NCBI RefSeq assembly: GCF_004359215.1
Contig: NC_090620.1
Location: 195,515 to 212,044, forward strand
Source: Bremia lactucae
Taxonomy: Eukaryota; Oomycota; Peronosporomycetes; Peronosporales; Peronosporaceae
Direction: 5' to 3'
Length of the DNA: 16,530 nt
In this document: in pieces, positions 1 to 13,771 of the stretch
Position numbering within the stretch: position 1 is the first letter of the stretch
How the letters are laid out: each line of letters starts with the position of its first letter
Position numbers and translations under genes: made by a program
The notes under the pieces: model-generated
The model's database searches: none
Told to the model about the DNA's origin: nothing
The model's input: the letters and a program-made list of their open reading frames with translations, nothing else

Positions 1-2321
1 ATCGTATATACGGACCATGCGTCATTACGCACGGCCGTCAATAGCCCACACCTCTCGCAAAGAATGGCGAGGTGGCTATCCTTCTTCGCGGAGTATAACT
101 TCTCCGTCGAATATAAACCAGGACGACTTAATGTCGTCGCTGATGCGTTATCACGCCGACCCGATTTCGAGTCAGCAGTGCACCCCAACAGTAAAAGTGA
201 TCTTACTGTTGCAACACTCACTACGAGTGTTCCATCATCAACCTTAGTTGATGAAATAAAGAAAGCCTATAAAGAAGATAAGGACCTTCTTTGTCTGATG
301 GATCATTTAATGAATCCATCCGATAAATCTTTTAAAGATCTACCGGCTTTATATCGATCGTCATCCGATCGATACACAACACGTAACGGCTTATTGTATT
401 ACACAGCCGTTACCGGCGACACCCCACGTGTCGTCGTCCCGACTCACAATGATTTGCGCTTGCGCATCATGTATGAGTGTCACGATGCTCCAACAAGTGG
501 ACATCGTGGACGTGAGAAGACTTACCTCACAGTAAGTCGATACTTTTACTGGCCCCGCCAGTATCAGTTTGTGCGCAAGTACATTCGTGCTTGCGAGGTT
601 TGTCAACGGGTGAAGCCTAGCCCTTCATCCCGTGCACCTCTTCAACCTCTACCACTTCCGGCAGAGTGTTGGCAGTCCGTATCTATGGACTTCGTCTTCG
701 GATTTCCCGAAGACGAACACAAAAACAATGGAATCCTTGTTTTTGTAGACAGATTCAGCAAGATGGTACACCTTGCTGCGGTACCAGAGTCGATTACGGC
801 TCCGGGTTGTGCCCGTGTCTTTATCGACACGGTATTCAAACTCCATGGGTTACCCCGTGAATTAGTCTCGGATAGAGATCCGAGATTCACGGCGGCGTTC
901 TGGCAATCCGTGTTCCGATCTCTCGGAACACGGCTGACTATGTCAACATCTGATCACCCGGAAACGGATGGTCAAACAGAACGCGTAAATCGCGTCCTCG
1001 AAGAGATACTTCGAGGTTACGTCCAATCGTATCCGAATTGGAGCGAGTTTTTACCGATGGTCGAATTCGCCATCAATAATTCGGTGCATGCGTCTACAAC
1101 GCATACACCGTTCTTTGTGAATGGCTTACGCCATCCTCGCATACCGGATCCTCTAGTTTAAGGGGGGGGGACTCGCACGAGCAAATCCAATTCTGGCTCA
1201 TGCTCATCACGCGTCGAAATTAACAACGACTCGAGTGATGTCAATGTCGAAGAAATTGACATCAAAGATGAGCATGATCTCATGGCAGTACGCACTAAGC
1301 GTACTGAAAATGACAAAACAAATGAGTTAGCAGAAGAGTTTCTGCTAACTCGAGAATCAATAATCCGTTTCGTTCAGGATTCCATTGCTAACGCAGTGGA
1401 CCGTCAGAAACGGAATGCAGACAAACATTGAAGAGCAAATGTTCATTCATTTCAAATTAATGATCTAGTGCTACTCTCTACGGTAAACCTACCTAAGCGA
1501 GTAATCACTAATGTGGGTAGCAGTAAACTACTACCCAAGTTCATTGGGCCTTTCCGTCTACTGCATCGCAGAGGCAATGCATAAACAATAGAATTGTCAC
1601 GTAGGATGCAAACGCATCCTACGTTACACGTTGGTCAACTCCGCCCGAACCATCAGTACGCGGCTTAGTTCCAGGACGGATCTGACCACCCTTTTCAAGA
1701 ATACTTAAGAGATTCTTGTGATCGCGAACCAAATTCTCATGTTGAACCTGGGGTTTCTCATGCCGGTTCCGAATATCCTCGAAACTGCGATAAGCTGACG
1801 ACAGCTCAACAAGAAGAGCGTGATTTTTCCGCTCGTACTCCAACAAGGAGTACGCACTCTTCGAACGGTCTTCCAACCGCTCGATATTGTGAGACTGCAC
1901 CGTCTGCTCCAACGAGCGACGCTTGCCGCGCTTGTGGTCAAGTCCCTCCTCCAAATCATGGAAGAAGTGATCATTTTGGCGATCTTCGACATTAGATCCG
2001 ACACACGGTTCGGATCTAATTTTCCCTCCTCCACCACAACCATTGGTGGATTCCCACGGTGGTCAACGTTTCCTTGTGGAACGTATCCTGAAACACCGTG
2101 ATGTGAAGGAGCAGCAAACGAGTTATCCTGTTCGCTGGCGCGGTTATCCACCTTCACATAACAGCTGGGAGCCTCATTTTCAGCTGGTTGCTGACGTTGA
2201 GGGCCTCGTCCGTCAGTATGACGAGACCCATCCGATTGTTCAGAAGGTCGATCGGAAAACACGCGCCCCTGGCGCGTGTAAATTGATTGCAAAACGTCAA
2301 TCGCATCCCGCATCTCAATAG
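1..2321 (+). pseudogene. Pol remnant: RNase H end, integrase, chromodomain
   Basis: The frame is open from base 1 to a TAA at 1159-1161. Codons 1-60 are the RNase H tail, with YTDHASL and the ADALSRRP motif. The integrase zinc finger has His at 481 and 502 and Cys at 592 and 601. The catalytic triad is Asp 688 (SMDFVFG), Asp 871 (VSDRDPRF) and Glu 979 (DGQTERVNR), with the D-x35-E spacing of true integrases. After TAA and a run of nine G, the same frame continues through stops at 1429, 1582 and 1666. It includes the GPY/F-like module (PKFIGPFRLL, about 1530-1555) and THPTLHVGQLRP (about 1612-1650). A frameshift between about 1971 and 1993 moves the chromodomain to another frame. The core is intact but a full-length Pol cannot be made. 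Confidence 0.95.
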
Positions 2322-3272
2322 AGATGCGAGCCCTTCCCCGACATCCCCTTTTACTCTCTTCGTGTTGTCAACACAACACGGACAGGGATCACCCCACGTG
2401 AGGCATGGAAGCCCAGCCTCACGTGACAACCGATGCAATTTATACTTTTCACCGGTTGGAGTTCGTTTCTTAAACTTAACGCGATTCGCGTTAAGTCTTT
2501 GATGCCAGGCTTCGCGTGCAATGTCCTTGACATTGCGAATAAAAAAAAAATGCGCTCCAGGCTTGCATAAGTGAGATAAAGATTCGCTTATTGTTGCCAC
2601 TAAACCATCGATGATTCAGAAAAGCATCGAGAAAAAAATCTTCCTCAGCGCGAAGCTTTTTCGCGCTGGGATCAAGCCATGTAGCTTTGTCGCAATAAAT
2701 AAGGGATATCTATTGTGAGGAGTAGTCTCTCCAGACAAGCTATTGATTAGCCGTTCGGGCAAAAGCCACGGCTTCTTTTCAGAGGCGAGATGATACATTT
2801 TATTGCCTTCACTCCCCTAAGTGGTACCCACTGAAGCAATGGTACCACAAGAAATATAATTGCGATGGCTTACGCCATCGTCACCACCTTGCACAGAAAC
2901 AGGTGCAGGTGACCGTACGGAAGAAGGAACGGGCGATGAGGGATCATCCTCATCGTCGGAACCAAATAGACTATTAACTCGTCTATCAGAATGAGCCCTC
3001 TCACTCGAAGGCTCATGGTCAGCCGCCTGACGTCTATCAGGCGACTGTTCTATTCTCCCCGAGTCGGCCATTGCGTCCGACTCGCATTCGTAGTCGACCT
3101 CCAAAGAGGGGTCGTACTCACGTGGTGAATCACCACGTGCTCCCGCAACATCTAGTGTTGCGCGAGAAGAAGATACTACGGCAGACGTTCCGTCTGCCGC
3201 AAGAAAGAACAGTGCGTCACCCGCGGCTGCACGAACCGCAGCCGAAGGCGCTGCACTATCAGCACCCCGCAT
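1619..3272 (-). pseudogene. Antisense reading frame of the left retrotransposon (function unknown)
   Basis: Reading leftward from an ATG at 3272, one frame stays open for 372 codon positions to 2154 with only two internal stops, TAG at 2817-2819 and TGA at 2616-2618. Chance would give about 17. The N-terminus is Ala-rich (MRGADSAAPSAAVRAAAG), followed by an acidic Ser-rich stretch (GSDDEDDPSSPVP) and a Cys-rich motif (CLTWGDPCPCC, about 2420). A further antisense frame, shifted and open from 2062 to the stop at 1619, gives a charged helical, coiled-coil-like tail (RRSLEQTVQ, LLEYERKNHALL). It overlaps the chromodomain and ends opposite the integrase C-terminus. Frames from 2313 and 2600 are both open between 2154 and 2313, so the exact path there is uncertain. 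I recognise no domain. It resembles the antisense extra ORFs known from some plant Ty3/gypsy elements only in position. Confidence 0.65.
2043..2321 (+). pseudogene. Chromodomain at the Pol C-terminus
   Basis: This frame is open from about 1971 to the TAG... region ending at 2321 and begins with a proline-rich linker. The chromodomain starts near 2070 with FLVERIL and continues through RWRGYPPSHNSWEP. The three aromatic cage positions that read methyl-lysine in HP1-type chromodomains are all aromatic here: Phe (2070), Trp (2136) and Tyr (2145). In chromoviruses this domain directs integration to marked chromatin. The tail after the domain is basic. It lies in a different frame from the integrase because of the upstream frameshift, so no start codon of its own is implied. 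The last 168 bases are also open on the opposite strand. Confidence 0.9.
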
Positions 3273-3389
3273 GGATTAGTTCTTCATGCGATGGAATTTA
3301 AAGTGACGGTTCTGACCAATCAACATCATTTTTAAATTAAGTGGTCCAGTGACCACTCCATCCGATGACAGTCAGAGTGATTGTCGTGT

Positions 3390-3399
3390 AAGGGAGGGG
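3390..3399 (+). other. Polypurine tract before the 3' LTR
   Basis: The all-purine run AAGGGAGGGG lies directly against the LTR start at 3400. In LTR retrotransposons this tract primes plus-strand DNA synthesis, and its position fixes the 5' edge of the LTR. Confidence 0.8.
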
Positions 3400-3846
3400 T
3401 GATATAACGGGGTGTATTGTTACATAAAATGAACACTTAAAGGTTGTTAACTGATATATTATCTAAAAGGTAGAGAATATTTGGAGAATATTACTTTATA
3501 TAGTAATGCTTGGAAATCTTATCCATAAATATTATAGGCTAGAATATCTATTTATCCCGCAGATCAATCAGCTGTAAACGTAAACAAAGAGAGAGCGACA
3601 GATAAAATTTCAATTGTATGTTTAGTATTAGTTCATAATTAAGTTAGCATTAACAGATAGAAAGAAGAAGAAACTTAATTTTATGAATACAGTTTTCATT
3701 TAACCCTCTTTAAAGTAGTTGTCTAAAATAGAAGTCTTCCTCTGCACGTACTAGTGTACGTGAAGTGACGTAAGGCACCACTCGCAACTGAAGCAGTGCG
3801 AAGTGGACTTGTACTGAAGCAGTACAAGTCGTAGTGCCCCGTTACA
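3400..3846 (+). repeat. 3' LTR of the left element (447 bp)
   Basis: The LTR begins TGATATAACGGGGTG right after the polypurine tract and ends GTGCCCCGTTACA. The ends share the inverted TAACGGGG/CCCCGTTA core and the usual TG...CA outer bases. The first two-thirds are AT-rich, with a TATA-like TTTATATAG at 3495-3503 inside a small inverted repeat (ATTACT...AGTAAT). The last 100 bases form three stem-loops (separate entry). The partner 5' LTR is outside the window, so the edges rest on the tract and the inverted ends, not on a pair comparison. Confidence 0.8.
3745..3830 (+). repeat. Three consecutive stem-loops at the LTR 3' end
   Basis: Stem-loop 1 (3745-3762) is CACGTAC-TAGT-GTACGTG. Stem-loop 2 (3778-3806) has near-perfect CCACTCGCA/TGCGAAGTGG arms. 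Stem-loop 3 (3806-3830) has perfect 10-bp arms GACTTGTACT/AGTACAAGTC. The second and third carry the same CTGAAGCAG core at the tip, so one may be a diverged duplicate of the other. They fall where the U5 part of the transcript would be. Confidence 0.8.
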
Positions 3847-4123
3847 GCTGACATGTTCCAACTTTATCCTGAGTACGATCGTGGACATAAAGAATCGTGT
3901 CTGAATGATCAGAGAGTGTGACTTTTCCTAATTGTAAGAAGAGCTAAAAAATTGCGCTAGCAAATCGCTTTGTAACTCGCGACTTTTCCGCTTGCCTCTG
4001 TTAAAACTTCTGCGTAAGTTGTGGAAAAGAATTCTCAATTACAAATGAACAAATACTAAATTTAAGATTTCGAATAACGATCGAGCGAAAAAAACTCGTG
4101 TTAACTTTTCCTCGGCGCAAAAA
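3847..4123 (+). promoter_or_regulatory. Upstream region of the FAR-acyltransferase gene
   Basis: These 277 bases lie between the LTR end and the start codon. They contain AT-rich stretches and a sequence similar to the oomycete initiator (consensus YTCANTYY) at 4034-4041, CTCAATTA, about 85 bases before the ATG. No TATA box is convincing. The whole native promoter either fits in this short space or was separated from upstream DNA by the retrotransposon. Confidence 0.3.
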
Positions 4124-7100
4124 ATGGAGCTGTGCTTCGCAGGCCAGAACCTCTTCATCACTGGCGGCACAGGCTTCCTAGCAAAAGTAAAAAACTATCC
4201 ATCGCCTATTTTTTCTCTCTTGTCGCGCTAAAGCATTGTTATCTTACCTCCAGGCCGTAATTGAGAAATTGCTACGATGCATGCCAAACATCGCCAAGGT
4301 ATTCGACCCCATTTTTTCATTTGATATCATTGATGCCAATCTTAACACGCATAGATTTATGTATTAATTCGCTCTCGCAAAGGCGTGGCGCCAGCCGAGC
4401 GCTTGCAGAAAGAAATCATTGAAAGTCGTATCTTCAATCGCCTACGCGCAGAAAGACCTAATGATTTTATAAGCTTTGCGAAACAAAAGCTCCAAGCCGT
4501 CGGTGGAGACATCACGGCACCCGAGTTGGGCCTTAGTGCAGAAGATGCACAGCTACTGCGGGCCTCTATTCATATTTCCATCCACTCGGCAGCTGCGGTG
4601 CAATTTGATGAGCCCCTCGAGACGGCTTTGGAGATGAATTGTCTTGGAGCTTTAAATGTTGCCAATTTTGTGCGGAGCTGCCCTAAAAATCTCTGCCACT
4701 TGCATGTGTCGACAGCCTATGTAAATAGTAATCGAAGAGATACGAGAATTTCTGAGGAATTGTATCCGCTGGATTTTGACGCTCATGTCGCACTTAAATC
4801 TGTGACCATGGCTTCGTCTAGTGAATTAGAGCGTCTAAAGGTTAATCTCATGGGAACTTATCCGAACACGTATACACTCACTAAGTCAATGGCGGAGCAT
4901 TTGTTGGTGAGGGAAATTGCGCCAACGTTTCCGTTGATTCTATTTCGCCCCACGATAATCGGTGCGAGTTGGAAAGAGCCCATGCCTGGTTGGATTGATC
5001 AAGTTGCAGCGGCCGGCGCTATTTTTTTGTCGGCAGGCTTGGGCGTCTTGACAATGCTACCGGGAGATCCACGAAATATTGCTGACATTGTTCCCGTGGA
5101 TCTGGCTGTAAACTGTATGCTTCTCTCGATTTGCGCCAGAATTCATGAGCACAAAAGCTCTTGTATACCACAAGAACACACTAGTCCGCTGGCAAAGGAC
5201 ATTGCCTTTAATAATCCCATGGTCGTACATTGTGGTACGTCAGATCCAAGACAGAACCCACTTCGTTGGCGTGTGCCGTGTGTGCTGGTACCGGAGTATT
5301 TTCGCAAGAATCCGCCTTTACGTGGAATTTCGCCGGCAAAATTCTCTATGATTCCAACTCATCAAAGCTTTCAGATTCAATGGTTTCTTGCATACGCACT
5401 ACCATCGTCTGTGTACTCAACTTTTGCTAACAAAAGCGGTCATCCAGGTCACATTAAAAATGCGGCCAAGCTATGGCAACTGACGTGGCGCGCGCGTAAT
5501 CTCGTGGAGCTGTTTAAGCCTTTTACTGAAAACCAATGGATCTTTGTCGCTGACGTTGTAGAAAACAGACTGAAGCCCTGGGCAACACAGGACTTTTGGA
5601 TTGATTCCCACGAAATTGCGTGGGAGCGGTACGTGAGGAATTTTTGCGTTGGGCTGAAGAAGTACATGCTAAATGAAGATGTAATTGACGTCGACATTGA
5701 AGGCGTGAATCAAACTAAGCTTGCACTAAGCACAGGGCGTATTTTGGAATGGGATCCGGATCACCACGCGATTTCGTTTCCTGGGCTTCTCTCTGACGTC
5801 GCTTGGGCTTACACGTCCAGCCGTAAGCCTGGATATACTACTTCTGGCCTCCTTGGCCGTGTCATGGGCATCACTGGGTGGAAGGAAGGCATGAATCATG
5901 AAGCCTCTCACGTCCCCAGACTTCATGTCGAATCTACTGGTGGCCTTCGCAATAGTGTCCTAGAGGCAGAAGTCGTCCGCACAGCTATAAGCAGACGTGT
6001 TCACGATCATGGAATGGACATTGATGACGTTGAGCGTGAAGCAGCCGCCATACTAAACGCTATGGCGTCACAGCAAAACTACAAGGTAGTGCGTAAGTTT
6101 GGCTGGTTACTACGAAAAGTGTGCCGCAACATGTACGAACAGATCCACGTGGACGAAACAGGACTTACTTGCATTCGTGATTTACTTGCTGAGAGACGTG
6201 GAAGTGTCGTTCTTGTGCCCACGCATCGATCTTATGTTGATTTTTTGCTCATGAGCTATGTATTCTTCGCCTACAATATTCCCATTCCTTATGTCGCAGC
6301 TGGAGAAGATTTTCTTAATTTGGGTAGACTCACGAAATTGCTTCGTGAGTCTGGTGCGTACTTTATTCGGCGATCATTTGCGGACGATCCTCTCTACTCT
6401 GCTGTATTTTGCGCTTACACGCAGTATTTGGTGGCTCGTGGACACACAATTGAATTTTTTATTGAGGGCTCCCGCAGTCGTAGCGGTAAACAACTTCATC
6501 CAAAGTTTGGCATCTTGAGCACAGTCGTCGACTGTTATCTCTCTGAGAAAGTAAAGAATGTAGGTGTTTTCTTACTTGCTTGTATTGAATATGTTAACGT
6601 GCAACTGCATGCATACAACAGCTCTATATCGTGCCCGTCACGATTGACTATGAGAAGCCGTTAGAAGCTCTCTTACACCAAAACGAGCTCCTAGGTGAAG
6701 GCAAAATTCGAGAGGTATAATGCTTGATTTCATGTAAACTGATGAAAGAAACTAATTTGTAATTGATCTGAGTATTATAGTCGATCAGTGCTCTATTCAA
6801 AGCCATGCCTATCGTGCGTAAAAAGTTTGGTTGCATTTCGGTCAAATTTGGTACACCATTGGACGTTAAAAAGCATGTTAGTGCTGCACGTGCACGTGCT
6901 CAAAAGCAGAATGTGTCAGTGCCCACTTCAGCCATAGTAGAAGATCTGGGCTACGCAATCACAGATGCATTGATTGACAGTGCGACGTGTTCAATGTCTC
7001 ATGTGGTGGCGACGATTTTGCTCGTGTACCGACAAGGGATTTCCAAACAAGAGCTAGTGCGCCAGACTGACTGGTTAAGACGAGAAATTCTGCAACGTGG

Positions 7101-8098
7101 GGGTCGAGTTATGGGTACTCAAGGACGCTCGCCCACCGTCGTCGTAGACTGTGCGCTTGAATTGCTGCACGAACTCGTCATGCGGCGGCGGAAGGACCTT
7201 GTTGAGCCTGCCATCCTTAGTGTGAGTAATTTTGAAGGATTAAAGACTGTTGAATTCTTACTTATGTGTAATTCTCAATTCGTCTTAGCGGGAGCAATAC
7301 CCCAACATGATCGGCCTCGGCTACTACCGCAACAAACTTCTGCATTGGTTCAACCTCGAAGGTGTTCTTGCTTGTGCATACAATGCTTTGGTCGCGTCCA
7401 ACATTCAATCTGGAGCTAACAGTACACATATAATAACAAGCCAGTCACAAAAAGCGGGTGTGGATCGCCAGGAGCTACTTGAAGGTGCCTTGTTCCTGCA
7501 CCAGATGCTTGCGATGGAATTTGTTCGTAAGGATGACCCAGAAGGGGATCGTGCTCATCTCGTCGAGGCCTTAGCCAAGCTCGAGACTCGCAAAGTGCTC
7601 GTATCGATAGCTAGTCTTTCACCGACGTCACCGCGCGTGGAAGCAGCAGATGGAACTATGCTGTCGTTATTAAACACTCTCATCGGGCCATTCATTGACA
7701 GCTACTGGGTTGCTATAACAAGTTTGTTTGCTTTGCGTCCAAAAGGTGAAGTTACTACCGAGGATTTGCTAAAGCGTCTCCAATGGCTCGCAGAGACCAT
7801 GTACCATGAAAAGCTCATTCATTTCTATGAGTCGTGCTCGCGTGAGACGCTGCAAAATGCGTTGGCGTTGCTGCAGCGGTGGGGAATCCTCTCCAGCTGC
7901 CAGCTTCCAGACAGCAGCAAAGCCAAACGCATTAAAGGAAAGCCAGTGAAACTTTTACGATTGAGCCAGCCGTACGCGCTCGATAAAAAGTTAGAGAAAC
8001 TTGCCATGCGCGTGTTTAAGTTCCGCAAGCTGCCGTTAGGCTCCATGATTGGCGAGACAGAGATACTCGCACGCCTGCCTGCGCTTTCTCGTATCTAA
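4124..8098 (+). CDS. Bifunctional fatty acyl-CoA reductase / glycerone-phosphate O-acyltransferase fusion, six exons
   Basis: The exons are 4124-4186, 4254-4298, 4355-6559, 6622-6714, 6781-7221 and 7289-8098. The five introns (56-67 nt) are GT-AG and all phase 0, and the product is 1218 residues. Residues 14-21 (GGTGFLAK) are the NAD(P)-binding Rossmann turn. Tyr209-x3-Lys213 (YTLTK) is the reductase active site. About 400-480 is the FAR C-terminal domain. The acyltransferase half has block I H660RSYVD665, block II GAYFIRR (703), block III FIEGSRSR (738) and block IV IVPVTIDYE (774), followed by a long GPAT/DHAPAT C-terminal region. The reductase makes fatty alcohol from acyl-CoA, and the acyltransferase loads an acyl group on dihydroxyacetone phosphate or glycerol 3-phosphate. 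The protein ends Ser-Arg-Ile, a weak PTS1-like signal. A fusion of this order (FARAT) is known from Dictyostelium, where it serves ether-lipid synthesis. Substrate choice and peroxisomal location here are inference; the fusion is directly visible. Confidence 0.92.
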
Positions 8099-8340
8099 TA
8101 CACTATAGAGTCATGCGCACATATGTAATCAGCGATAAATCTGCATACAGTCATGCGTTAGGTCACATACAGCGCGCGACATTATCACCCTATTTCCGAG
8201 GATGGAATTGGCGACATTTAGAAAGTTGTACGACAGCAACAAAAGACCTCCATTTAAATACACTATCACGTGTATCCATTTGATCAAATTAAACTCAACA
8301 AAGGCACGTATTTGCTCCTTCGTCTTTAGGAGCCAGTCGC
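8099..8340. other. Convergent intergenic region
   Basis: The two host genes meet tail to tail across 242 bases, which must hold both 3' UTRs. It is AT-rich. I see no clear polyadenylation signal, RNA gene or repeat. Overlapping 3' ends of the two transcripts are possible. Confidence 0.6.
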
Positions 8341-9810
8341 TTACAAGTTGCCACGAATGCGCTCAGAGACGTCGCCAATGCTGTGGTGAGCAGCAGACCA
8401 GGCGCAGTGGAATAGGCCTTCACGGTCTGTGCGCTCGTACGTGTGACCGCCGAAAAAGTCACGCTGAGCTTGAGTCAGATTAGCAGGCAGACGCTCGCGA
8501 CGGAACGTGTCGTAGTAATTGAGCGAGCTTGCGAACGAGGGCGCAGGGATGCCACTCGCGACCGCAAGCGACACCACACGACGCCACGAGTACTGGCGTG
8601 CCTGCAGCTCCGCGGCAAAGTCTGGATCCACCAGCAGCGAGATGAGTGAAGCGTCTTTCGTGTACGCGGACTTAATGCGGTCCAGGAACTTGGCACGAAT
8701 GATGCAACCGCCCTTCCAAATGCGAGCGCACTCGCCCAAGTTCACATTCCAGCCCATTTGGACACCCGCCTCGCGGATAAGATTCAAACCTTGGGCATAT
8801 GAGCAGATCTTGGATGCATACAGCGCCTGGCGCACATCGTCGATCAATTGCTGCTTATCAACGGCAGGGATTTCAGACGGACCGAAAAGAATCTTGGACG
8901 CAAAAACACGCTCGTCTTTACGAGCGCTAAGGTAGCGAGCGTCCAGAGATGCTGTGATAGTGGGAGCAGCGATCGAGCGCTCGGCAGCTTCTTGTACAGT
9001 CCAGCGACCAGTACCCTTCATGCCAGTTTTATCGAGGATCTTGTCTAACACGTAGCCTTCATCAGTCAGATCGTCCTTCTTAGCAAAAATTTGGGCCGTA
9101 ATTTCAATAAGAAATGACTCCAGCTCGCTCTTATTCCAATCATCAAAGACATTGGCCAGCTCTTCGTTCGTGAGGCCGCCAGCGATCTTGAGAATGTCGT
9201 AGGCCTCGGCAATCAGCTGCATGTCACCATACTCGATACCATTGTGCACCATTTTCACATAATTGCCGGAGCCGATAGGACCAAGGTACGTGGTGCAAGC
9301 ACCATCGTCTACCTGGGCAGCGCATTTGGTGATAATAGGCTCCAGCGCATCAAAGGCCTCTTTCGGACCTCCGGGCATGAGCGAAGGCCCATTGCGAGCA
9401 CCTTCTTCGCCACCAGACACACCCATACCGACGAAATGAATGCCTTTAGGCACTAGCTCACTTGCACGGCGCACGCTGTTGGGGAACCACTCGTTGCCGC
9501 CGTCAACAAGAATGTCGCCGGATTCCATGAATTCTGAGAGCGCGGCAATGGTCATATCGACAGGCTTTCCAGCGACGACGAGAATGATAATCTTGCGGGG
9601 ACGAGCGAGCGAGGCCACGAAATCCTTCATGTCTTTGTAGCCCACAAGAGGCAGGTTACCTTCATCCTTGGCTCGCTGCACCGTTGCATCCACCTTGTCG
9701 GGAGAGCGGTTGCAGACTGACACCTTGAATCCGTGTGATGCCATGTTAAGCGCAAAGTTTTGACCCATAACGGCAAGGCCGAATAGTCCGATGTCCGAGA
9801 GATCAGCCAT
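8341..9810 (-). CDS. gnd: 6-phosphogluconate dehydrogenase, decarboxylating
   Basis: This enzyme of the oxidative pentose phosphate pathway converts 6-phosphogluconate to ribulose 5-phosphate and CO2 while making NADPH, normally in the cytosol. It is a single 489-residue exon, full length for the family. Visible landmarks are GLAVMG (11-16) for the cofactor, VSGGEEGARNGPSLMPGG (131-148), and the catalytic Lys186, Asn190 and Glu193 in NYVKMVHNGIEYGDMQ. The family signature is DKTGMKGTGRW, and the C-terminal substrate-binding RDFFGGHTYERTD is present. The form DKTGMKGTGxWTVQEAAE with AAPTITASLD is the plant/cyanobacterial type, not the animal/fungal one (usually AGQKGTGKWT). No targeting peptide or PTS1 is seen. 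The start is fixed by the family N-terminus directly before the Rossmann turn. Codon use is GC-richer than the flanking DNA. Confidence 0.97.
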   Translation of the reverse strand: MADLSDIGLFGLAVMGQNFALNMASHGFKVSVCNRSPDKVDATVQRAKDEGNLPLVGYKDMKDFVASLARPRKIIILVVAGKPVDMTIAALSEFMESGDILVDGGNEWFPNSVRRASELVPKGIHFVGMGVSGGEEGARNGPSLMPGGPKEAFDALEPIITKCAAQVDDGACTTYLGPIGSGNYVKMVHNGIEYGDMQLIAEAYDILKIAGGLTNEELANVFDDWNKSELESFLIEITAQIFAKKDDLTDEGYVLDKILDKTGMKGTGRWTVQEAAERSIAAPTITASLDARYLSARKDERVFASKILFGPSEIPAVDKQQLIDDVRQALYASKICSYAQGLNLIREAGVQMGWNVNLGECARIWKGGCIIRAKFLDRIKSAYTKDASLISLLVDPDFAAELQARQYSWRRVVSLAVASGIPAPSFASSLNYYDTFRRERLPANLTQAQRDFFGGHTYERTDREGLFHCAWSAAHHSIGDVSERIRGNL

Positions 9811-9903
9811 GTTAAGAAGAATTAGGGGGATTTAGCGCTCAGATTGCGTTATGAGGAGTGTGGTGAAGATTCAATTAAGAGTTTTAAACACTGATGACAA
9901 ATG

Positions 9904-12996: not shown

Positions 12997-13771
12997 TCAC
13001 GTGTACCCGAACGTAACAGGGCTGATATCAGCAAGCCTATCGGCTAATTCTCCCCCACAAAGCCCTGAACCACGCAGGGGAATCGGAAACGGAACGCGTC
13101 GGTGGGTGAGACCGTTGACATAGAACGGAGTATAGCCTGTAGAGGCATGTACAGCGTTATTTGACGCAAAATCCACCACTGGGAGCATTGAGCTCCAGCG
13201 CTTTGGTGTCTGAGTATACACACTGCGTAAAATGTCTTCAATTACGCGATTTACAGGTTCAGTTTGACCATCGGTCTACGGATGGTCCGCGGTGGACATG
13301 TCCAATCTGGTGCCAAGCACGCAGAAAATAGATTTCCTAAACTTACTCGTGAAACGGGAGTCCCGATCAGAGACATTGCCACTGGCAAACCGGGTTGTCG
13401 AAACACGCGATCGATAAACAGCCTTGCTGAACCTTCACCATCAATGGAATCCGGCACAGCCGCTAAGTGAGTTATTTTGCTCAATCGGTCAAAAAAGACC
13501 ACTACGTCAGAGTTACCGGCCGAATCTTTTGGTAGACCGAAAACAAAATCCATACTAATGGACTCGCAACACCCTATGGATACGGGCAGACTTGCCAGTG
13601 GCGCAGCAGCATGCGCCGAGAATTTAATCCGTTGGCAAGTTTCACAAGTGCAAACGTTAGTGCTGACAGATTATAAAGTTTAAGCCAACAAAAAGTTTGG
13701 CTTTCAGAGCCGTAGGTCTTTTCTTTACCGAAATGACCACAAAGGACAGTATCGTGTGTTTCACAGAGGAT
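12997..13771 (-). pseudogene. Integrase zinc finger and catalytic core of the right element
   Basis: The zinc-finger end CTCETCQR is readable at about 13630-13652. The core begins with MDFVFGLPKD (catalytic Asp at 13548-13550), and VVVFFDRLSKITHLAAVPDSI follows. After LPVAM a frameshift moves the second catalytic Asp region out of frame. The core end (WSSMLPVVDFASNNAVHAS, YTPFYVNGLTHRR) is in a third frame at 12997-13221. It is non-functional. Confidence 0.9.

What the first reader, a model, noticed from the sequence alone, without database searches (positions are those of the whole stretch)
1..3846. The left retrotransposon is saturated with perfect short inverted repeats
Reading by eye I find about 26 perfect inverted repeats with arms of 8-12 bp and loops of 1-15 nt. 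Left-arm starts: 186, 352, 383, 691, 720, 866, 908, 996, 1237, 1286, 1324, 1599, 1834, 1991, 2259, 2309, 2361, 2395, 2474, 2518, 2646, 2821, 2934, 3119, 3179, 3806. Examples are TTCGTCTTCGG/CCGAAGACGAA (691-717), GAGTTAGCAGAA/TTCTGCTAACTC (1324-1351) and CACGTGGTGA/TCACCACGTG (3119-3139). Many 6-7 bp ones lie between. A rough chance estimate (4^-8 per position, 15 loop sizes) is about one. In the two host genes (5.7 kb) I found only one of this size. They cross coding, antisense and LTR sequence alike. The matching integrase sites in the right element (about 13519-13549 for the 691 hairpin) have none, so they arose in this lineage. Possible causes are templated strand-switch mutation that perfects quasi-palindromes during reverse transcription, or selection for a highly folded genomic RNA.
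Basis: partly seen in the sequence, partly recalled or inferred. Interest (0 to 1): 0.88.

Follow-up and report, generated by a model that had tools for sequence, protein, structure and literature searches.

The report
A retrotransposon saturated with hairpins
A family of Ty3/gypsy retrotransposons in an oomycete genome carries a perfect short inverted repeat about every 85 bases, in coding and non-coding sequence alike, so that it is predicted to fold more strongly than the host genes, the other retrotransposons and even the RNA phages MS2 and Qbeta tested here, likely because its RNA copy is under selection to fold.

Summary
The left element holds 28 perfect inverted repeats (arm 8 or more, loop 15 or less) in 3,846 bases; dinucleotide shuffles give 0.75, and nearby host sequence is at chance. 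The hairpins are not new to this copy: 19 other copies at 89-95% identity share them, with decay, and more distant subfamilies keep many. Two further gypsy groups in the genome are hairpin-rich, mostly at other positions; 22 of 30 sampled gypsy loci are poor, yet the 8 of those that I folded still beat shuffles. Two Copia loci and the host genes tested do not. Predicted folding energy exceeds shuffles by 39% (42% against synonymous shuffles in pol), above MS2 and Qbeta (29-31%) and the published vertebrate-virus maximum (23.4%). Downstream of pol, variants shared by several copies show transversions halved in arms while private variants do not, a sign of selection during replication; pol itself shows no such depletion. 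A test for strand-switch mutation found one candidate but no excess over controls. I favour selection for a pervasively folded genomic RNA, as in structured RNA viruses. Weak points: G-U pairs are scarce, covariation is modest, the selected strand is unproven, and the benefit (packaging is my guess) is inferred.

The parts
1..1161 (+). pol reading frame: end of RNase H, H2C2 zinc finger and integrase core of a Ty3/gypsy element; carries 9 of the 28 hairpins
   Evidence: Pfam PF17921, PF00665, PF09337; ORF; RNase H tail read by eye; hairpins
2067..2234 (+). chromodomain remnant (open over this stretch; the frame between it and pol is broken in this copy)
   Evidence: translation; the homologous stretch in copy L059 hits PF00385 and PF24626
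3387..3846 (+). 3' LTR, TGTAA...TTACA; also carries hairpins
   Evidence: ends read from the sequence; its first part matches an LTR stretch left of the window at 84% over 185 nt
186..211 (.). hairpin arm 9 loop 8
   Evidence: perfect in 15 of 18 other copies
   Evidence: 16 of 18
352..374 (.). hairpin arm 9 loop 5
   Evidence: 17 of 18
383..413 (.). hairpin arm 9 loop 13; one pair T:A to C:G in L058
   Evidence: 17 of 19
691..717 (.). hairpin arm 11 loop 5
   Evidence: 14 of 19
719..746 (.). hairpin arm 10 loop 8 (A/C left arm, low complexity)
   Evidence: left out of the filtered counts from then on
866..885 (.). hairpin arm 8 loop 4
   Evidence: 12 of 19
908..933 (.). hairpin arm 11 loop 4; one pair C:G to A:T in L058
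   Evidence: 14 of 19
996..1016 (.). hairpin arm 8 loop 5
   Evidence: 13 of 19
1236..1264 (.). hairpin arm 10 loop 9; one pair is a double change seen in the window copy only
   Evidence: 0 of 19 perfect as in the window, 7-9 of 10 pairs kept
1286..1306 (.). hairpin arm 8 loop 5; A:T/G:C covarying pair
   Evidence: 6 of 19
1324..1351 (.). hairpin arm 12 loop 4; T:A/C:G covarying pair
   Evidence: 3 of 19
1599..1624 (.). hairpin arm 11 loop 4
   Evidence: 9 of 18
1834..1854 (.). hairpin arm 8 loop 5
   Evidence: 10 of 19
1991..2020 (.). hairpin arm 11 loop 8
   Evidence: 5 of 19
2259..2279 (.). hairpin arm 9 loop 3
   Evidence: 0 of 19 perfect, 5-8 of 9 pairs kept
2309..2328 (.). hairpin arm 8 loop 4
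   Evidence: 11 of 19
2361..2380 (.). hairpin arm 8 loop 4
   Evidence: 0 of 19 perfect
2395..2425 (.). hairpin arm 10 loop 11
   Evidence: 8 of 19
2474..2496 (.). hairpin arm 11 loop 1
   Evidence: 2 of 18
2518..2536 (.). hairpin arm 8 loop 3
   Evidence: 0 of 19 perfect
2646..2668 (.). hairpin arm 9 loop 5
   Evidence: 9 of 18
2821..2848 (.). hairpin arm 8 loop 12
   Evidence: 6 of 15
2934..2955 (.). hairpin arm 8 loop 6
   Evidence: 6 of 15
   Evidence: 4 of 14
3119..3139 (.). hairpin arm 10 loop 1
   Evidence: 7 of 14
3179..3199 (.). hairpin arm 9 loop 3
   Evidence: 2 of 14
3806..3830 (.). hairpin arm 11 loop 3, inside the LTR
   Evidence: 6 of 9

Best explanation
The window's left element belongs to a Ty3/gypsy family whose sequence holds a short perfect inverted repeat about every 85 bases, and these are likely kept by selection for a genome-long chain of local hairpins in the element's RNA, which would compact and shield it, most likely for packaging into virus-like particles. 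Shown here: the repeats are far above chance, shared across the family, present in coding, non-coding and LTR sequence, and raise predicted folding energy about 39% above shuffles. Also shown: downstream of pol, variants shared by several copies spare the arms from transversions, whereas private variants do not. Inferred: that the folded molecule is the element's RNA, and that the benefit is compaction for packaging. The two Copia loci and the host genes tested in the same genome lack the trait, so a general response of the host genome is unlikely. Untested: that the RNA folds this way in the cell, that Gag binds or condenses it, and any protection from small-RNA silencing.
For: Repeat excess, also against synonymous shuffles (folding energy of pol 1-1050 z -9.6). 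Folding excess in 350-nt fragments: window 38.6%, L059 39.9%, L003 35.6%, L058 32.9%; MS2 29.3%, Qbeta 30.5%; Copia -0.7 and 1.3%; host genes 0.2 and 1.3%. Published values: HCV 7.5-10.7%, highest vertebrate RNA virus 23.4% (PMC7642675, passages). Selection signal in 1161-3386, on the 41 hairpins seen in at least 4 of 20 copies: private variants are equally common in arms and elsewhere (transitions 0.256 and 0.257 per site, transversions 0.272 and 0.282), but shared transversions number 20 over 508 arm sites, 131 over 1602 other sites (p 0.001) and 19 over 130 loop sites. The same private/shared contrast recovers codon periodicity in pol (shared 24/15/48, private 111/108/121), so it does detect selection. 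Double Watson-Crick changes carried by two or more copies: 7 pairs, against 0-5 with partners slid by 1-5 columns; 26 cells against a permuted mean of 14.3 (maximum 24 in 300; relatedness of copies is not controlled there). Hairpins lie mostly at different places in the other rich families, as described for genome-scale RNA structure.
Against: In pol (1-1160) the transversion depletion is absent: 3 shared transversions over 188 arm sites, 12 over 930 other sites, and shared transitions are if anything commoner in arms (10 and 29). G-U pairs are scarce: relative to shuffles 0.40 (sense) and 0.59 (antisense) in pol and 0.56 and 0.58 downstream, against 0.82/0.73 in MS2 and 0.84/0.71 in Qbeta. 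Single-mismatch stems in the window show 6 A-C, 0 G-T and 5 transversion mismatches. Among variants shared by three or more copies in arms of 1161-3386, A-C (14) and G-T (11) are about equal, so no sense-strand preference appears. Sense and antisense folding excess are similar (39 and 43%), though MS2 and Qbeta are also near-symmetric. Counting every pair with any double change, the true register (28) does not exceed the slid ones (16-28). Hairpin ascertainment could lower shared variation in arms, though it should not single out transversions. No RNA was probed.
Confidence: 0.58

Rival explanations
1. Templated strand-switch mutation: during reverse transcription the growing strand folds back, copies its own arm and perfects quasi-palindromes, with no benefit from the structure.
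For: Arms are Watson-Crick pure and poor in G-U; coding, LTR and non-coding sequence are all affected, and the host genes tested are not. Copying between inverted-repeat arms is documented in yeast (starts of the abstracts of PMC8604942 and PMC3820800 in a search listing). One candidate event: a new 11-bp-arm hairpin in L058, though both of its arms changed.
Against: 99 clusters of private changes match nearby inverted sequence no more than mirror controls at 8 bases or more; single-copy new hairpins are no more than chance; a mutational model does not predict that transversions alone are depleted in arms; the two Copia loci tested are also made by reverse transcription and lack the trait; mismatched intermediates are seen at several covarying pairs.
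Confidence: 0.21
2. Selection on a DNA form (minus-strand cDNA hairpins or cruciforms) rather than on RNA.
For: No sense-strand preference of mismatches or G-U pairs; in the window the antisense fold is slightly stronger.
Against: Subfamily members L058 and L059 fold slightly better in sense; no need for cDNA hairpins every 85 bases is known to me; the two RNA phages also look nearly strand-symmetric.
Confidence: 0.13
3. By-product of dual-strand coding: an antisense reading frame overlaps the 3' part and constrains it.
For: A 367-aa antisense frame is open in L059 and has 143 homologues, the named ones listed being from oomycetes. Shared variants are uneven over the antisense codon positions in 1619-1954 (34/23/45), though the sense frame overlaps there.
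Against: Hairpins are as dense in pol 1-1161 (15 at arm >=7, against 27 in 1162-3386) and lie upstream of it too, far from that frame; no codon periodicity of shared variants in 2817-3272 (42/42/48).
Confidence: 0.04
4. Chance, base composition or assembly artefact.
For: None found.
Against: Dinucleotide and synonymous shuffles; the same hairpins in 19 other copies on many contigs.
Confidence: 0.01

Closest known systems
Genome-scale ordered RNA structure (GORS) of positive-strand RNA viruses
   Same: Many consecutive local stem-loops across coding and non-coding sequence, folding energy well above shuffles, positions poorly conserved between related lineages (PMC7642675, passages).
   Different: Here in an LTR retrotransposon; the excess (39%) is beyond the 7-24% quoted there for structured vertebrate RNA viruses; stems are perfect and G-U-poor; within the family the positions are conserved.
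Structured genomes of ssRNA phages MS2 and Qbeta (dispersed packaging-signal idea, PMC6281560, highlights in a search listing)
   Same: Large folding excess on both strands, computed the same way; inverted-repeat excess at arm >=8 (Qbeta 6 against 1.25, MS2 3 against 0.55).
   Different: The window family has 27 against 0.75 and a larger folding excess; no capsid-binding motif is known here.
Quasi-palindrome correction and template-switch mutation
   Same: Ends in perfect inverted repeats with small loops.
   Different: No excess of multi-base templated events over controls.
Ty1/Ty3 packaging and dimerisation RNA structures (PMC5454406, PMC4974528; starts of abstracts in search listings)
   Same: Structured retrotransposon RNA linked to packaging.
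   Different: In Ty1 the listing speaks of a structured domain at the 5' terminus; here structure runs through all of the element that could be read.

Membership tests
Ty3/gypsy LTR retrotransposon (chromovirus type) | Integrase with H2C2 zinc finger and rve core after RNase H | tested here: met
   PF17921, PF00665; RNase H tail by eye
Ty3/gypsy LTR retrotransposon (chromovirus type) | Chromodomain at the integrase C-terminus | tested here: met
   In copy L059 (PF00385, E 8.4e-14); the window keeps a 56-residue remnant
Ty3/gypsy LTR retrotransposon (chromovirus type) | Two LTRs flanking gag-pol | tested here: inconclusive
   3' LTR present and an LTR stretch lies to the left, but what lies between is withheld
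Genome-scale ordered RNA structure | Folding energy above sequence-order shuffles along the genome | tested here: met
   38.6% mean over 10 fragments of the window, lowest 21.0%
Genome-scale ordered RNA structure | Excess holds with protein and codon use fixed | tested here: met
   42.1%, z -9.6 against 60 synonymous shuffles, pol 1-1050
Genome-scale ordered RNA structure | Pairing positions poorly conserved between related lineages | tested here: inconclusive
   Mostly different positions between gypsy families, conserved within the window family
Genome-scale ordered RNA structure | Wobble tolerance biased to the genomic strand (expected for RNA-level selection; seen here in MS2 and Qbeta) | tested here: not met
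   G-U scarce, no sense excess
Genome-scale ordered RNA structure | Carried by a positive-strand RNA virus | tested here: not met
   It is a retrotransposon
Genome-scale ordered RNA structure | Folded state shown by RNA probing | not testable with these tools
   no RNA data
Template-switch (quasi-palindrome) mutation | Clusters of simultaneous changes copied from the inverted neighbour | tested here: not met
   3 of 99 clusters at 8 bases or more, mirror control 5 of 99; one of 11 bases in L058 stands alone

The most novel reading that the evidence does not exclude
Ty3/gypsy retrotransposons of an oomycete have evolved genome-scale ordered RNA structure, in one family more extreme than in the canonical packaged RNA phages, with perfect hairpins tiled through genes and LTRs; the intensity differs sharply between gypsy lineages and is absent from Copia elements in the same genome, pointing to an element-encoded (Gag or RT) requirement for a hairpin-ladder genome.
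Probability: 0.5. Interest if true: 0.82.

Novelty: new variant of a known kind. Interest (0 to 1): 0.72.

Why it matters
Genome-wide RNA folding is known from RNA viruses and debated as a device for packaging, persistence or escape from RNA sensing. Finding it, stronger than in the two phages tested, in retrotransposons that live beside unstructured Copia elements in one genome gives a natural within-genome control for asking what the folding is for. It also bears on small RNAs: in Phytophthora infestans inverted and tandem repeats are the sources richest in small RNA per megabase, and from inverted repeats the shorter (18-23 nt) class prevails (PMC3804510, passages), so a hairpin-tiled element could feed or resist that pathway.

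Tried and rejected
Rejected: chance or composition; mirror or direct repeats as a general repeat effect (direct repeats are mildly raised, 4 against 0.85); recent creation in this copy; strand-switch clusters; dual coding as the cause. A viral-contig scan for relatives found none. The first alignment had minus-strand copies in the wrong orientation and was redone; the counts do not depend on orientation. Loop base composition gave no consistent strand signal. One weak DDE_3 transposase locus, below Pfam's cut-off, folded at 9.4% sense and 2.5% antisense with 2 repeats; it is a single locus and settles nothing. Literature: nine full-text searches; those on retrotransposons with genome-scale ordered RNA structure, folding energy or MFED listed no paper that reports it in a retrotransposon, judged from titles and starts of abstracts; the library holds open-licence papers only.

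The confidence of the best explanation went from 0.60 to 0.58 for the pol result, with the first two rivals raised by 0.01 each.
Full report
What was checked. A script lists 28 perfect inverted repeats with arms of 8-12 bp and loops up to 15 nt in window 1-3846 and 7 in the remaining 12.7 kb. Dinucleotide shuffles of the left element give 0.75 on average and at most 3 in 60 runs; window 3900-9900 is at chance (1 against 0.75) and the right-hand gypsy element has a slight excess (5 against 1.4). Loops peak at 3-5 nt and the excess fades beyond 50 nt. At arm >=7 there are 44 hairpins (15 in pol, 27 in 1162-3386, 2 in the LTR), their centres on average 84 nt apart, irregularly (sd 74).

What the element is. 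The left end is the 3' part of a Ty3/gypsy element: RNase H tail (by eye), H2C2 and rve integrase domains, a chromodomain remnant (Pfam hit in copy L059) and a 3' LTR at 3387-3846. The part to the left of the window is withheld and was not read. The closest named proteins are from Hyaloperonospora and Peronospora and, further off, Phytophthora (the best 120 of 143 and of 3,542 hits were listed), so the host is likely a downy mildew or near relative; the genome (116 Mb in 220 contigs) carries no name.

Family-wide, not copy-specific. Nineteen further copies at 89-95% identity keep the same hairpins with scattered decay, best in pol (for example 17 of 18 perfect at 352) and less downstream; four hairpins (1236, 2259, 2361, 2518) are perfect in none of the 19, most of which lack only one to three of the pairs. 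L056, L058 and L059, at 81-88% identity to the rows compared, keep many of them. Of the 20 copies, 7 have a readable 1.5 kb upstream of the match: six of these hold 6-11 repeats at arm >=8 there and L020 holds none; in the other 13 it is partly or wholly withheld. By its reading frame the stretch in L003 is still pol (by eye).

Other elements in the same genome. Of 30 loci taken by integrase zinc finger, 8 are hairpin-rich (2.8-4.7 per kb) and 22 are poor (0-1.3 per kb; shuffles 0-0.4); a ninth rich locus, L025, came from a stretch taken as background. The rich ones form two sister groups; in a tree of 33 of 37 integrases (4 dropped for low coverage) they and the window family are separate, with a poor clade as the nearest relative of the two groups (support 0.87), so the trait changed at least twice. 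Hairpin positions mostly differ between the window family and these groups. Two Copia loci have 1 and 3 repeats (shuffles 0.5 and 0.95). The repeat-rich part of background stretch L022 is a member of the window's own family, judged by its antisense frame (by eye), while its other 7.4 kb has 1 repeat.

Predicted folding. In 350-nt fragments the window exceeds dinucleotide shuffles by 38.6%, L059 39.9%, L003 35.6%, L058 32.9%; MS2 29.3% and Qbeta 30.5%; four other gypsy loci 6-18%; Copia -0.7 and 1.3%; host genes 0.2 and 1.3%. For pol 1-1050 with protein and codon use fixed the excess is 42.1%, z -9.6. PMC7642675 (passages read) quotes 7.5-10.7% for HCV, about 15% for SARS-CoV-2 and 23.4% as the highest of vertebrate RNA viruses; its scan used 350-base fragments. 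Eight of the 22 hairpin-poor gypsy loci were folded and all eight are above shuffles (6-17%), so the window family is the extreme of a wider gypsy trait in this genome.

Selection or mutation. Private variants (one copy only) behave as neutral decay: no codon periodicity in pol (111/108/121) and, downstream of pol, equal rates in arms and elsewhere. Shared variants, which arose in replicating lineages, show codon periodicity in pol (24/15/48) and, in 1161-3386, transversions halved in arms: 20 over 508 arm sites, 131 over 1602 other sites, 19 over 130 loop sites. Shared transitions are hardly reduced (77 over 508 against 280 over 1602). A transversion destroys a pair; a transition leaves G-T or A-C. 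In pol itself no depletion is seen (3 over 188 against 12 over 930), on few variants. Compensatory change exists but is modest: 7 column pairs carry a double Watson-Crick change in two or more copies, against 0-5 for slid partners, but counting every double change gives 28 against 16-28. Clusters of private changes do not copy nearby inverted sequence more than controls do (3 of 99 at 8 bases or more; mirror 5, direct 0, complement 1), apart from one 11-base case in L058 in which both arms changed. I read this as selection for pairing, not as strand-switch mutation.

What does not fit well. Stems avoid G-U on both strands (0.40-0.59 of the shuffle level, against 0.71-0.84 in the two phages), and A-C is as common as G-T among shared variants in arms. 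Strong selection for stability would also disfavour G-U, but these points leave open whether RNA or a DNA form is selected. The choice of packaging as the benefit is inference: Copia elements share the genome, and so presumably the silencing machinery, and the two tested are unstructured, which points to something carried by the gypsy elements.

Novelty. Pervasive folding is known for RNA viruses; three full-text searches listed no report in a retrotransposon, in a library of open-licence papers only.

Noticed in passing
window 1619-1954(-), 1705-2313(-), 2154-2600(-), 2817-3272(-); L059:700-1800(-): Pieces of a long antisense reading frame. In L059 367 aa are open, antisense to the integrase tail and chromodomain; 143 homologues, among those named Peronospora and Hyaloperonospora proteins up to 593 aa; five of them scanned gave no Pfam family above its cut-off. 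No codon periodicity of shared variants in window 2817-3272.
   Followed up: partly
L025:5975-7051(-): A second gypsy family also carries a 359-aa antisense frame in its 3' part, with no Pfam hit.
   Followed up: no
window 1504-1775, 1537-2619, 1915-2111, 2473-2676, 3405-3563: In some copies these segments lie inverted relative to their flanks: micro-inversions or nested pieces near hairpins.
   Followed up: no
L058 (G000:C12:2770200-2774100) and 13 other places: Fourteen places with the same score of 1249 bits over the same 1,372 bases: a recent amplification or segmental duplication of a subfamily, not compared letter by letter.
   Followed up: no
window 3406-3589 and L021:1503-1687: LTR stretches left and right of the element are only 84% identical although pol is open to 1161, suggesting an old or recombinant copy.
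   Followed up: no
window 1162-1170: Run of nine G directly after the stop codon of pol.
   Followed up: no
window 4385-8098 and 8341-9810: Host genes: male-sterility (fatty acyl reductase type) and acyltransferase domains in one frame, followed by a glycerol-3-phosphate acyltransferase C-terminal region, and 6-phosphogluconate dehydrogenase on the other strand.
   Followed up: partly
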